Assembly: GCF_003584125.1 (NCBI RefSeq)
Contig: NZ_QXFL01000003.1
Coordinates: forward strand, 1-64,000
Length of the DNA stretch: 64,000 nucleotides
Reading direction: 5' to 3'
Source: Aurantiacibacter zhengii
GTDB lineage: Bacteria; Pseudomonadota; Alphaproteobacteria; Sphingomonadales; Sphingomonadaceae
How positions within the stretch are numbered: position 1 is the first letter of the stretch; each line of letters begins with the position of its first letter. Under the pieces are notes generated by a model, which did no database searches, was not told the origin of the DNA, and was given only the letters and a program-made list of their open reading frames with translations. Shown piece by piece: positions 1-3,547 of this stretch. A program made the translations under genes and the position numbers.

Positions 1-10
1 TAGCACATTG

Positions 11-152
11 GGAAGCTGCCTCTCGAAGGCAGCGCTCGCCTTGATGGAGACAAGGGCGCGTAGCGCCCGCAGGCTTCATCAAGGCGGTCATGACCGGTCA
101 TCAGGTCTCTAAAGTGAAGTTGTCGACTCAACACTTTGGAGACAGACCGACC
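11..152 (+). ncRNA. Candidate bridge RNA region of the IS110 element
   Basis: The sequence folds by eye into three ordered elements. The first is a hairpin with a 6-bp stem (15-20 with 28-33). The second is a 10-bp perfect stem (37-46 with 77-86) that encloses a 6-bp GC hairpin (54-59 with 63-68). The third is a 10-base palindrome at 86-95. IS110-family recombinases are known to use a structured non-coding RNA made from an element end to recognise target and donor DNA. This position, directly upstream of the transposase, fits that role for the IS110 subgroup. Assignment as a bridge RNA is inference from position and structure; no covariance search was possible, and the target- and donor-binding loops are not identified. 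Confidence 0.4.
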
Positions 153-1445
153 ATGACCAAGCTCAGTTCTACACCCGCCGATGCCGTGCTGGTAGCCATC
201 GATATGTCCAAGCACCGCCAGGAGGTCCTCATCGAACGCCCGGAGGGCGGGCGGCGACGGCGTATGACAGTGATGGCGACGAAGACCGATTACGATCGCC
301 TTGCGTCCGATCTGGCTGATATTGGCAGACCGATTGTGGTCGGCTTCGAGGCGACCGGTAACTATCACCGCACCTTGGCGCACCGCATGCTCACAGCAGG
401 TTTCGAACTGCGCCTGATCTCGTCCGTAGCCCTGGCCCGGACCCGAGAGGCTCTACATAATGGCTGGGACAAGAACGACTCCAAGGACGCGCAGGTGATC
501 TTGCATATGCTGCGGATTGGCGCCACCCAGCGCTACGTCGATCCGCTTGCCGCCGGGATTAACGATCTGCAGGAGATGTCGAAGACACACGAGGCCATCT
601 CCAAAGCCAAGACCCAGACCTGGCACCGGATCCTGACCCATTACCTGCCCCTCTACTTCCCAGAGATCGAGCGCTTCGCCGGCAACAGCAGGTCTGATTG
701 GTTTCTTGCCTTGCTCGAGCGGTTTCCGACGCCCGGGAGCATGACAGCGCTTGGCCAGGAAGCATTCACGCGCGAGGCGTGGTCACTGGTCGGTCGCAAG
801 GTCTCCAAGGCTCGATTAATCAACGATATTTACGAGACCGCCTGCGCATCCGTCGCACTGCCGGTCGATGAGGATTCTGTGGCGATTGCCATGTTTCGCA
901 TGGTCATCGCGCAAGCGCGCAGTCTGATCCGCCAACGCGACGAGATCGAGCGAACCGCCCATGCCATGCTCAGCGAGAACCGTGACTACCAGCTGCTTCG
1001 TATGATCCCTGGCATCGGCCCGATCAACGCGCTGACCATCCTTGCCGAGGCCGGGGACCTTCGACGGTTTGCCCACCATCGCCAGTTCCTCAAGTTCTGC
1101 GGACTCGATCTGGCCACCTGCCAGTCCGGCACATTCCGCGGTCGGACCAAGCTTTCCAAATATGGTAATGCTCGGTTGCGCCGCACTTTCTGGATGGCCG
1201 CACAAGTCGCCGCTCGCCAACGCGACAACAGCTTTCGCGATAAGCTGGGTCGATACATGGAAGGACACGCCAGCGACCCTGATCGCCGCCGCAAGGCAAT
1301 GACTGCACTCACCGCCAAGATGGCGCGCGTCGCGCACGCCGTCATCAAGACGGGAACCGAGTACCGCCCGTTCCTCGAACGGGCGGACACCAGATGGAAG
1401 GACCCCTCTCTGCTGTGCCGTGAGGGCGCAACTGCGACCCTGTAG
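153..1445 (+). CDS. IS110-family transposase (DEDD recombinase)
   Basis: A 430-residue DNA recombinase that would move the IS110 element through a RuvC-like DEDD domain plus a C-terminal serine-containing domain. The N-terminus has the start of the RuvC fold (VAIDMSKHRQEV). The C-terminal half has the helix-hairpin-helix style stretch MIPGIGPINALTIL followed by the typical FCGLDL and GNARLRRTFWMAA segments. An in-frame ATG exists 63 bases upstream, but the start chosen here gives the normal N-terminus and leaves the structured flank non-coding. The length is typical and no stop or frameshift interrupts it, so it could be active. Family assignment is firm; the subgroup is less certain. Confidence 0.9.
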   Translation: MTKLSSTPADAVLVAIDMSKHRQEVLIERPEGGRRRRMTVMATKTDYDRLASDLADIGRPIVVGFEATGNYHRTLAHRMLTAGFELRLISSVALARTREALHNGWDKNDSKDAQVILHMLRIGATQRYVDPLAAGINDLQEMSKTHEAISKAKTQTWHRILTHYLPLYFPEIERFAGNSRSDWFLALLERFPTPGSMTALGQEAFTREAWSLVGRKVSKARLINDIYETACASVALPVDEDSVAIAMFRMVIAQARSLIRQRDEIERTAHAMLSENRDYQLLRMIPGIGPINALTILAEAGDLRRFAHHRQFLKFCGLDLATCQSGTFRGRTKLSKYGNARLRRTFWMAAQVAARQRDNSFRDKLGRYMEGHASDPDRRRKAMTALTAKMARVAHAVIKTGTEYRPFLERADTRWKDPSLLCREGATATL

Positions 1446-1659
1446 ATAATGTTCGGGCCTTCCATCTGGCATCCGCATCTCATTTTAAGGACGGTTAGGA
1501 CCACGACCGATGCGGCCGCTGGATCCTGTGTTTGCTATGGCCGAGAGCGCATTCCTTGACGATGGAAGCCATCTGGATCAAAAAGACATTTGCGCCGGTC
1601 ATGATCGGCGCAACGAGACCTGCTGGCCTTGTCCCACAGCTGCTTCCCGACCTAGGACG

Positions 1660-2207
1660 TTGTCGCTGACCACTGTGTACGGCTTGCCGCGCAGCCCGAT
1701 CAGGCTGCTCAGCTCGCGGGCGACCCGCGCACCGGAGAGCGACGTATCGGCCACCAGCGCCAGGCACTCCCGCGTGTAGTCATCGACCACGCACAGGATG
1801 CGGAAGCGCCGACCACAGATCAGGCTGTCGGATACGAAGTCGAGGCTCCACCGCTGGTTCGGACCATCTGGCAGCACCATTGGCCTGCGCGTGCCCAGTG
1901 CCCGTTTGCGACCGCCACGCCGGCGCACCCGGAGCCCTTCCTCGCGATAGATGCGCAGCAGCTTCTTGTGGTTGGGCCGCATGCCTTCCCTCGCCAACAG
2001 GTAGCCCAGGCGGCGATAACCGAACCGGCGACGTTCCGCCGCCAGCTCGCGCAACCGTTGCCGCAGCGCCCCGTCATCCGGCCTCGTCGGCTCGTAACGG
2101 ATCACCCTGCGGCTCACACCGACCAGACTGCACGCCCGACGCTCGCTCAGCCCGTGCTGCTCACGGGCGTGGGCGACGGCTTCCCGCTTGGCGCCGGGCG
2201 TTACCAT
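1660..2207 (-). pseudogene. IS3-family transposase orfB, 3' truncated
   Basis: This is the N-terminal part of an IS407-type DDE transposase. It has the HTH_21 segment (YRRLGYLLAREGM), the first catalytic Asp region (RWSLDFVSD), and the second Asp in VVSDN. The coding similarity stops right after this second Asp, so the catalytic Glu and the C-terminal region are lost. An open frame runs on to 1599 but encodes unrelated residues. The ATG at 2207 sits just after a run of seven A residues (minus strand) that marks the usual -1 frameshift site joining orfA and orfB in this family. Confidence 0.85.
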
Positions 2208-2375: not shown

Positions 2376-3266
2376 TCATGCCGCCATTGTGGTGATCAGA
2401 TCATGGGGGGCATGCCCCCCATGATCTGAAGCGTCGATTTGCCCATATGCCTCGGCCGGGGTTTTGCCCGCAAGGCGTGAATGAGGCCGATGATGGTTGT
2501 AATAGGCAAACCACCGGCCCAGACCGGCGCGCAGTTCGGAACCCGTCTCGAAAGCGTGCAGGTAGACGCACTCGTACTTCACGGATCGCCACAGGCGTTC
2601 GATGAAGATGTTGTCCATCCAGCGCCCCTTGCCATCCATGCTGATTTTCACTTCGGCCGCCCGCAGCATGCCAGTGAAGGCCTGGCTGGTGAACTGGCTG
2701 CCCTGATCAGTGTTGAAGATGTCCGGCTTACCGTATCGGACCATAGCCTCTTCCAGCGCTTCGACGCAAAAGGCAGCATCCATGGTGTTGGACAATCGCC
2801 AGGCGAGCACCTTGCGGGTCGCCCAATCCATGATCGCGACCAGGTAGAGGAAGCCCCGACGCATCGGCAGGTACGTCACATCCGCGCACCACGCCTGGTT
2901 CGGCCGCGTGATCTCTAGATCGCGCAGTAGATAGGGATAAATCCGATGCTCCGGGTGCGGATCGCTGGTGCGCGGGCGCTGGTAGATCGCCACCAGCCCC
3001 ATCTTCGCCATCAACCGCCGCACCCGGCGGCGTCCCACCGCGTGCCCGAGCCGTTGCAGGTGCCGCGCCATCTGCCGGCTGCCGTACCACGGGCAGTCCA
3101 TGAACACCGCGTCGATCACCCGCATCAGCGCCAGCATCTCCTCGCTCTGGGGCACAGGGGTGTAGTAATACGACGACCGGCTGATCGACAGCAGGCGGCA
3201 TTGCCTCGTGATCGACAGGCGTGGGTGAGCAGGCTCGATCATTGATCGCCTCTGGCCCGCGCTCAT
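2376..3266 (-). CDS. IS3-family transposase orfB (integrase catalytic region)
   Basis: A 296-residue DDE transposase subunit with the N-terminal HTH_21 region followed by the rve integrase core. Catalytic residues are visible: Asp in WCADVTYLP, Asp in IFNTDQGSQFTS, and Glu in FIERLWRSVK. The C-terminal YNHHRPHSRLAGKTPAEAY motif is typical. The start chosen overlaps the orfA stop as ATGA. The open frame extends 51 codons further upstream, opposite the orfA reading, which would allow a frameshift fusion product. No damage is seen. Confidence 0.92.
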   Translation of the reverse strand: MSAGQRRSMIEPAHPRLSITRQCRLLSISRSSYYYTPVPQSEEMLALMRVIDAVFMDCPWYGSRQMARHLQRLGHAVGRRRVRRLMAKMGLVAIYQRPRTSDPHPEHRIYPYLLRDLEITRPNQAWCADVTYLPMRRGFLYLVAIMDWATRKVLAWRLSNTMDAAFCVEALEEAMVRYGKPDIFNTDQGSQFTSQAFTGMLRAAEVKISMDGKGRWMDNIFIERLWRSVKYECVYLHAFETGSELRAGLGRWFAYYNHHRPHSRLAGKTPAEAYGQIDASDHGGHAPHDLITTMAA

Positions 3267-3547
3267 CGACCGGAGGCTTTCGCTAAAAAATCGCGTTCCA
3301 CCAGCAACTGCCCGATCTTGGCGTGCAACTTCTCGATTTCCGCTTCGGCCTCCGCCTTCGACGCTTGCTCCCCACCGTCGAACAGGCCGGCCATTCCCTC
3401 CATCGCCTGGCGCTTCCACGCCCCGATCATCGTATGGTGGACCCCGTGCTTGGCGGCCAGTTCCGCCAGCGTCAATTCGCCACGGATCGCCTCCATCGCT
3501 ACCTTCGCCTTGAACTCCGCGCTGTAGCGCTTTCTCGTCTTCTTCAT
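3263..3547 (-). CDS. IS3-family transposase orfA (DNA-binding)
   Basis: A 94-residue helix-turn-helix protein that binds the element ends. It starts MKKTRKRYSAEFKAKVAMEA and has the HTH core LAAKHGVHHTMIGAWKRQA, followed by a coiled-coil tail rich in Glu, Lys and Ala. An in-frame ATG 36 bases upstream lies close to the element end and is less likely to be the start. Its stop codon overlaps the orfB start by ATGA. Confidence 0.9.
   Translation of the reverse strand: MKKTRKRYSAEFKAKVAMEAIRGELTLAELAAKHGVHHTMIGAWKRQAMEGMAGLFDGGEQASKAEAEAEIEKLHAKIGQLLVERDFLAKASGR

What the first reader, a model, noticed from the sequence alone, without database searches (positions are those of the whole stretch)
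11..152. Structured IS110 left flank: candidate bridge RNA
The bases before the IS110 transposase fold into a 6-bp hairpin, then a 10-bp perfect stem enclosing a 6-bp GC hairpin, then a 10-base palindrome. IS110-family recombinases are known to be guided by a structured RNA from an element end. An intact transposase with such a flank may be a working, reprogrammable recombinase system.
Basis: partly seen in the sequence, partly recalled or inferred. Interest (0 to 1): 0.75.

Follow-up and report, generated by a model that had tools for sequence, protein, structure and literature searches.

The report
Jumping gene guided into other transposons
The folded stretch in front of this transposase gene is real but is probably not the guide RNA; the guide appears to lie at the other end of the same mobile element, and it seems to steer the element into the catalytic-site codons of other transposons' genes.

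Summary
The structures at 11-152 are real (z -5.8; 0 of 200 shuffles as stable), but the bridge RNA is at the other end. Window 1-1659 is a complete IS110-family element with its recombinase at 153-1445. The left end holds the terminus and a fast-changing 5' leader that pairs the start codon; none of its loops keeps a target match. A conserved, covarying two-loop RNA lies at about 1390-1550, overlapping the stop codon. Loop 1 (GUGCCGU, GAUAAUG) pairs with the two halves of the insertion site. Loop 2 matches the element's own ends and changes with them in diverged relatives. The site is CCRTTRTC, antisense of the D-N-G codons at the second catalytic Asp of DDE transposases: left flank CC[AG] in 103 of 104 loci, right flank TT[AG]TC in 99 of 102; 72 of 77 distinct two-sided sites have a DDE transposase piece on at least one side. 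Guide letters opposite the two third codon positions can pair with either purine by wobble. ISEc21 was already known to hit this motif, with its guide upstream of the gene. Expression and pairing are untested. A new variant of a known kind.

The parts
1..1659 (+). complete IS110-family element; left end TAGCAC.., right end ..TAGGACG; no target duplication seen
   Evidence: Ends shared by relatives in unrelated flanks; uninterrupted IS3 relatives in the same genome read ..GTGCCG|TTATCGCTG.. at the junction
1..12 (+). left terminus TAGCACATTGGG (right half of the donor junction in a circular form)
   Evidence: First six bases nearly invariant in relatives; covaries with a loop-2 guide
10..16 (+). 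left sub-terminal inverted repeat GGGAAGC
   Evidence: Matches 1642-1648; longest exact repeat 4-12 bp in 52 distinct end pairs, often at a fixed offset
   Evidence: 52.9% of cells paired across 34 relatives
   Evidence: helices 2-5 at 35.9-63.5% of cells paired across 34 relatives
86..158 (+). start-codon stem GGTCATG/CATGACC with the GGAG region in the hairpin below it
   Evidence: helices 6-8, 82.5-87.5% of cells paired, with changes on both sides; at least two of three start-codon bases paired in the MFE of 28 of 34
153..1445 (+). recombinase (transposase), 430 aa, DEDD and Transposase_20 domains
   Evidence: aligns with IS621
1390..1550 (+). predicted bridge RNA (two internal-loop stem-loops), overlapping the 3' end of the recombinase gene; outer limits approximate
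1390..1469 (+). target-binding stem-loop: outer stem 1390-1401/1458-1469, inner stem 1424-1429/1434-1440
1415..1421 (+). [quoted passage not shown]
   Evidence: GCC[GA]T in 34 of 34 relatives; pairing scan
1445..1451 (+). right target guide GAUAAUG (would pair with the top strand C-R-TT-R-TC); shares its first base with the stop codon TAG 1443-1445
   Evidence: GA[TC]AATG in 34 of 34 relatives; pairing scan
1487..1495 (+). left donor guide AAGGACGGU
   Evidence: Matches right end TAGGACG|T with one extra base; covaries in L055 and L138
1527..1540 (+). right donor guide UGUG-UU-UGCUAUG(G), discontiguous pairing with CGTAGCACA
   Evidence: covaries with the left terminus in L133, L194, L192, L193 and L138
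1642..1648 (+). right sub-terminal inverted repeat GCTTCCC
1660..2207 (-). target gene: 5' part of an IS3-family orfB, cut after the second catalytic Asp
   Evidence: Pfam HTH_21 and rve; the rve match ends at profile position 73 of 102, at the junction

Best explanation
An intact IS110-family element whose bridge RNA is encoded at the right end, at about 1390-1550, overlapping the recombinase stop codon. [quoted passage not shown] Loop 2 pairs with the element's own abutted ends. The recombinase joins circle and target at a small core (GT in the donor, GT or AT in the target) without duplicating the target. The target-guide letters opposite the two third codon positions (Asn, Asp) can pair with either purine, so one guide reads all four GAY-AAY-GG spellings of D-N-G and directs insertion antisense into the second-Asp motif of DDE transposases, splitting them. 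The left-end structure is the 5' leader of the recombinase mRNA, which hides the start codon, plus the left donor end. Shown by sequence: ends, site motif, conserved covarying RNA, guide-target match, guide-donor covariation. Inferred: transcription, binding, pairing in action, translational repression by the leader.
For: Flanks found from element-side motifs only: left CC[AG] in 103 of 104 loci, right TT[AG]TC in 99 of 102; loci are partly redundant, and 72 of 74 distinct full-length two-sided sites fit. In a second list selected for TT[AG]TC on the right, 72 of 77 distinct sites have a piece that matches a DDE transposase by blastp on at least one side; IS3, IS481 and Mu-type by Pfam, though the rve match of L008, L090 and L134 is below the curated cut-off. 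RNA: 34 relatives chosen from 105 usable of 118 loci; RNAalifold 38 pairs, 23 with changes on both sides; my structure 96.0% of cells paired against 31-58% when slid, 17 pairs with double changes against 8.0 in shuffles. Both target guides in 34 of 34, also where the gene stops before the left guide (8 by script, 7 after I read L100 as mislabelled). In L138 the stem sequences are replaced and still pair, while both guides are kept. Donor covariation: L055 guide GAGTACAGT with end TAGTACG (end found with a broad pattern after the guide was read); L138 AAGTCCCGT with TAGTCCG; L133 and L194 left end TAAC with GUUA; L192 and L193 left end TAGCAT with UGUA; L138 TAGT with ACUA. Wobble positions: GG 37, AG 25, AA 8, GA 7. 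Leader: start codon paired in 28 of 34 MFEs.
Against: No expression data. By letters alone an ordered 7+7 guide pair arises 63 times in 2000 shuffles of the element, both strands (191 times for 5+7), and the left end also holds 7-nt matches: CATTGGG at 6 and GGCAGCG at 28 with the top strand, GTTGTCG at 119 with the bottom strand. Folding of the right end alone is not unusual (1440-1670 z 0.20; 1380-1600 z -1.71). The left-end structure also covaries above its shuffles (34 of 47 pairs with double changes against 21.3), so it too is maintained. Target bases beyond -6..+5 are biased (A at -12 in 68, T at -9 in 71, C at -8 in 65 of 74 sites), which the guides do not obviously explain. The genome holds 63 GNGCCRTTRTC sites against 29 for the reversed pattern, so guides alone do not account for the bias to transposases. 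Of 74 sites 32 have A at -1, so the first core base often differs from the donor's G. Non-transposase sites: L051 (DUF1173), L097 and L022 (unidentified), and the mutL side of L129. Donor-guide misfits: L121 (TAGGCCG) and L079 (TAGCAA) mismatch; 14 loci need rU-dG at the left donor guide; the Microvirga group and L102 need wobble; the outer UGUG part varies in 11 loci with TAGCAC (TATG, TGCG, TAGG). Loop 2 is broken in L013 and L116. Leader: the start codon is mostly open in L049, L128, L126, L048, L054 and L131.
Confidence: 0.83

Rival explanations
1. The left-end structure (1-152) is the bridge RNA, as in IS621, and the right-end conservation is something else.
For: Strong fold; most IS110-group elements are predicted to encode the RNA in the left end (PMC11208160, section 12); [quoted passage not shown] the left-end structure covaries above its shuffles.
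Against: That match is in 12 of 34 relatives, though the target does not change; the left end is 84 nt in L138 and 93 nt in L128; the consensus fold keeps 4 pairs. Donor matches in the left end were not searched systematically.
Confidence: 0.05
2. Both ends give RNAs: the right-end RNA guides, and the left-end RNA is a separate regulator or a second part of a split guide.
For: Left-end folds have z of -2.0 or lower in 31 of 34 relatives and the structure covaries above its controls; [quoted passage not shown]
Against: The first two hairpins are very variable or absent; a leader that hides the start codon explains the best-conserved part more simply.
Confidence: 0.2
3. The right-end hairpin is an mRNA 3' structure or a coding constraint, and its match to the target is chance.
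For: It overlaps the gene in most relatives; letters alone match 63 times in 2000 shuffles.
Against: Guide loops are among the most invariant columns while stems change and re-pair; guides persist where the gene ends before them; two further loops covary with the element ends.
Confidence: 0.05
4. The concentration in transposase genes reflects survival: the element can insert at any CCRTTRTC-like site, and mainly insertions in dispensable transposase genes are kept.
For: 63 GNGCCRTTRTC sites exist in the genome; of 30 examined, 3 have the IS3 context at -12/-9/-8; rare non-transposase sites exist.
Against: It does not replace the guide rule, since the junction motif CCR|TTRTC holds also at the non-transposase sites; whether survival or further contacts give the bias is open.
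Confidence: 0.3

Closest known systems
ISEc21 (IS110 family), PMC11187229
   Same: Targets the codons at and around the second D of DDE in certain IS3-family transposases; its RNA matches both target strands in the order bottom-strand match first; no target duplication (section 12 read).
   Different: Its guide RNA is upstream of the gene (bp 8-179) and its transposase has 358 aa; here the RNA is at the right end and the transposase has 430 aa. Sequences could not be compared (records not held).
IS621 bridge RNA (IS110 group), PMC11208160
   Same: Two internal loops for target and donor, left guides pairing with bottom strands and right guides with top strands, core inside the pairings, discontiguous right donor guide, homologous recombinase.
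   Different: IS621 encodes the RNA in the left end; here it is at the right end and overlaps the stop codon. The target here is DDE transposase codons; IS621 targets REP elements.
IS1111 group
   Same: RNA downstream of the gene and sub-terminal inverted repeats.
   Different: Transposase 430 aa against 330-350; repeats short and often imperfect; a sizeable left end is also present; the guide order is the IS110 one, reported as reversed in IS1111 (abstract).
ISRel25 and ISMex12 (annotated IS110-like relatives)
   Same: ISRel25 (L194): both ends, both loops and target class as here. ISMex12 (L013): left end, loop 1 and left flank as here.
   Different: L013 has lost loop 2 and its right end. 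Their guide RNA was not found described: ISMex12 gave 0 papers; ISRel25 does not occur in the 10 papers listed of 34.

Membership tests
IS110-family RNA-guided element | DEDD_Tnp_IS110 plus Transposase_20 domains | tested here: met
   PF01548 2.3e-19, PF02371 3.6e-26; NF033542 214.2 bits against cut-off 140
IS110-family RNA-guided element | active-site columns (Asp/Glu/Asp/Asp and Ser) kept | tested here: met
   alignment with IS621 and ISCro4 chains; which columns are catalytic is recalled
IS110-family RNA-guided element | insertion without target duplication | tested here: met
   comparison with uninterrupted IS3 relatives (67-80% identical) in the same genome
IS110-family RNA-guided element | two-loop RNA with conserved paired structure | tested here: met
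   (right end)
IS110-family RNA-guided element | loop complementary to both halves of the target | tested here: met
   chance rate by letters 63 in 2000 shuffles
IS110-family RNA-guided element | loop complementary to the donor ends | tested here: met
   covariation in L055, L138, L133, L194, L192, L193; misfits listed under evidence against
IS110-family RNA-guided element | RNA expressed and bound by the recombinase | not testable with these tools
   needs RNA and protein work
   three 7-nt matches in the window; GTTGTCG kept in 12 of 34, GGCAGCG in 1 of 34; CATTGGG is the terminus itself and was not counted
   no systematic search
   start-codon helices 82.5-87.5% of cells paired, hairpins 1 and 2 35.9-63.5%, whole structure above its controls; 4 pairs by RNAalifold
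IS1111 group | RNA in the right end | tested here: met
IS1111 group | sub-terminal inverted repeats of 7-17 bp | tested here: inconclusive
   7 bp in the window; 22 of 52 distinct end pairs have 7 or more exact bp, some at an irregular offset; 35 of 2000 shuffled pairs reach 7
IS1111 group | transposase of about 330-350 aa | tested here: not met
   430 aa; size range from PMC11187229 section 6
IS1111 group | recombinase phylogeny | not tested
   no tree with IS1111 and IS110 type sequences was built
ISEc21-like | target at the second D of DDE | tested here: met
ISEc21-like | guide RNA upstream of the gene | tested here: not met
   RNA is downstream

The most novel reading that the evidence does not exclude
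A family of RNA-guided elements whose guide has become fixed on a protein motif: one guide, tolerant of both third codon positions through G-U wobble, reads all GAY-AAY-GG spellings of D-N-G and so disables IS3, IS481 and Mu-type transposases alike. The same guide loops occur in Alphaproteobacteria, a Gammaproteobacterium (Rahnella, L189) and an Acidobacterium (L055). ISEc21 hits the same motif with its guide RNA at the opposite end, so the catalytic motif of rival transposons may be a recurrent target of RNA-guided elements.
Probability: 0.45. Interest if true: 0.75.

Novelty: new variant of a known kind. Interest (0 to 1): 0.56.

Why it matters
It places a testable guide RNA for a widespread IS110 lineage at the end opposite to the one a reader would pick from folding strength, overlapping the stop codon. 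It shows that strong folding at an IS110 end does not identify the guide RNA, whereas loop conservation and covariation with the ends do. If it acts as inferred, it is a compact recombinase with a short, wobble-tolerant target, and an element that spreads by splitting rival transposase genes.

Tried and rejected
Left end as guide RNA: rejected, with the caveat that its structure is itself maintained. Rfam: no gathering-level hit in the whole window; at a relaxed threshold in 1-1700 one match, Esr41, E 0.78, far below its gathering score. Minus-strand left-end RNA: folds (z -4.44); I compared its loops with the target by eye only. Coding constraint on the guides: rejected. RTG variant GACAATG (L117, L119, L129, L131, L132): 5 of 5 have G at the Asp third position, as pairing predicts, but G is common there anyway, so this is not evidence. 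A junction promoter was looked for by eye in the abutted ends and not established (no call). No structure prediction and no tree was run.

More relatives, own genome included where it is in the group: phylum protein search 4 of 398 genomes; covariance-model search 3 of 385; L138 relatives 1 of 78, L138's own; viral contigs none for L138; phages no match. Of six regions fetched, four (L191-L194) entered the donor table; L189 has another IS110 element in its right end and L190 lacks a recognisable right end.

Rows dropped before counts: of 116 loci, 5 had no left motif and 7 a left flank cut by a contig start; 14 had no right motif. The three right-flank exceptions (L026, L115, L116) have no true right end nearby; the left exception L111 is an element-element junction. 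The first flank count used patterns that included target bases and was replaced; the 77-site list and the donor table still use such patterns. In one search the script put L100 among genes ending before the left guide; I read that as a mislabel (8 becomes 7); L132, L052 and L044 have early stops.

Full report
WHAT IS THERE. The window begins exactly at the left end of an IS110-family element: contig C22 starts at element base 1. The 430-aa recombinase at 153-1445 has both IS110 domains and aligns with IS621 across its active-site regions (which columns are catalytic is recalled). Copies in unrelated surroundings share TAGCAC.. on the left and ..TAGGACG on the right, which puts the right end at 1659. 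Beyond it lies the 5' part of an IS3-family orfB on the minus strand; its rve match breaks off at profile position 73 of 102, at the junction. Uninterrupted IS3 relatives in the same genome, 67% identical, read straight through ..GTGCCG|TTATCGCTG.., so nothing appears to be duplicated. The donor core would be GT; the target has GT or AT.

All three structures exist and are far from chance. The leader also pairs its palindrome with the start codon. In 34 diverged relatives the left end has z from -1.2 to -7.5, 31 of 34 at -2.0 or lower. Hairpins 1 and 2 are poorly conserved and sometimes missing; the start-codon stem and the hairpin below it hold best. Counted on my structure, the left end is 71.4% paired, against 65.3% in shuffles and 29-46% when slid, with 34 of 47 pairs doubly changed against 21.3: the structure is maintained, mainly near the start codon. 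In L138 (45% identical recombinase) the left end is 84 nt and still pairs the start codon. The simplest reading is a translation-hiding 5' leader. This is an inference from folding: at least two of three start-codon bases are paired in 28 of 34 MFEs, and six relatives have a mostly open start codon.

THE TARGET. Using element-side motifs only, the left flank ends CC[AG] in 103 of 104 loci and the right flank begins TT[AG]TC in 99 of 102; the exceptions are an element-element junction (L111) and three copies without a true right end nearby. Loci are partly redundant; among 74 distinct full two-sided sites, 72 fit and the other two come from those misplaced right ends. The octamer is the antisense of GAY AAY GG, D-N-G. 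In a list of 77 distinct sites (selected for TT[AG]TC on the right), 72 have a piece that matches a DDE transposase on at least one side, 2 run into a contig end, and 3 do not match (L051 in a DUF1173 gene, L097, L022). One of the 72, L129, has mutL on its left and IS3 on its right. So the rule is one of nucleotides, with a strong bias to transposases. All four combinations of the two third-position purines occur (GG 37, AG 25, AA 8, GA 7). The genome has 63 GNGCCRTTRTC sites against 29 for the reversed pattern, so guides of this length do not by themselves explain the bias; survival in dispensable genes or further contacts (A-12, T-9, C-8) may. The neighbouring IS3-type orfB at 2376-3419, which reads DQG where the target reads DNG, is not interrupted.

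THE RNA. The 3' end of the gene and the following DNA fold into a long stem with an internal loop and a capped inner stem. Aligned over 34 relatives (A1; chosen from 105 usable of 118 loci), RNAalifold finds 38 pairs, 23 with changes on both sides. My structure has 96.0% of cells paired and 17 doubly changed pairs against 8.0 in shuffles; sliding the partners drops pairing to 31-58%. RNAalifold keeps 4 pairs at the left end. The guide loops are among the most invariant columns: GCC[GA]T and GA[TC]AATG in 34 of 34. GUGCCGU equals the top strand of the left target and so would pair with the bottom strand; [quoted passage not shown] This is the order reported for ISEc21. Folding energy of the right end alone would not have shown it (z 0.20), and letters alone match 63 times in 2000 shuffles; the left end has 7-nt matches too. 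Conservation and position on opposite sides of one loop make the case. It is not a coding effect: the gene stops before the left guide in 7 of 34 relatives as I read (8 by its script).

DONOR GUIDES. The second stem-loop carries AAGGACGGU and UGUGUUUGCUAUGG. The first matches the right end TAGGACG|T with one extra base; the second pairs discontiguously with CGTAGCACA. They move with the ends: L055 has GAGTACAGT in the RNA, and its end, found with a broad pattern after the guide had been read, is TAGTACG; L138 has AAGTCCCGT with TAGTCCG; left end TAAC goes with GUUA in L133 and L194; left end TAGCAT goes with UGUA in L192 and L193; TAGT goes with ACUA in L138. Misfits: the Microvirga group (4 loci, TAGT with GCUA), L102 and 14 loci with AAGGATGGT or GAGGATGGT need wobble pairs; L121 and L079 mismatch; the outer UGUG part reads TATG, TGCG or TAGG in 11 loci with an unchanged end; L013 and L116 have a broken second loop.

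WHAT IT WORKS LIKE AND WHAT IT IS. It works like a bridge-RNA recombinase (PMC11208160: abstract, sections 5, 6, 7, 12, 20, the first part of section 43 and passages read). It meets the sequence-level features of the IS110 family that I could test. It does not fit either subgroup cleanly: the RNA is at the right end and there are sub-terminal repeats (GGGAAGC 10-16, GCTTCCC 1642-1648), as in IS1111, but the recombinase is 430 aa and the guide order is that of IS110. ISEc21 was already reported to target the second D of DDE in IS3-family genes with an upstream RNA (PMC11187229: abstract, sections 6, 9, 12, 13 and passages read), so the target class is not new, and both papers report exceptions in RNA location. 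What I add is this lineage's RNA, its overlap with the stop codon, the breadth of target families and the wobble-tolerant fixed guide. I found no description of this lineage's RNA in: 'bridge RNA' with 'IS110' from 2024 (18 of 19 listed, only the two main papers opened), ISMex12 (0 papers), and IS110 with RNA-guided, target site, DDE transposase, catalytic motif (4 listed). The library is open-access only and supplementary files could not be read, so a tabulated prediction may exist.

LIMITS. No RNA evidence. Convergence with ISEc21 was not tested because its sequence was not held. Whether the wobble-tolerant letters are selected or incidental is open.

Noticed in passing
L111 (Nitrobacter sp. 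Nb-311A contig), left end of the element: The left flank is the right end of another copy (..CATAGGACG|TAGCACC), a head-to-tail junction like the one expected in a circle.
   Followed up: no
L129, both flanks: The element has mutL on its left (at codons for DNGCGM) and an IS3 gene on its right: recombination between two copies, or an assembly chimera.
   Followed up: partly
L051, both flanks: Insertion in a DUF1173 gene of a Novacetimonas hansenii plasmid, a non-transposase site with the same octamer.
   Followed up: partly
G000 contigs C14, C16, C22, C29: The four identical hits lie at contig ends (two contigs start at element base 1, two share the element plus 239 flank bases), so they may be two insertions split by assembly.
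   Followed up: no
L189 (Rahnella sikkimica plasmid), downstream of the gene: A relative with both target-guide loops whose right end contains another IS110-type recombinase frame some 270 bases after the stop.
   Followed up: no
window 2376-3419, minus strand: A second IS3-type orfB (rve) next to the interrupted one; its motif reads TDQGSQF, not DNG, and it is not interrupted.
   Followed up: no
RNA loop 1, 5' side (alignment A3, invariant T20 C21 of the first sequence): An invariant UC some 6 nt before the left guide might contact the conserved TC at target -9/-8; unexplained.
   Followed up: no
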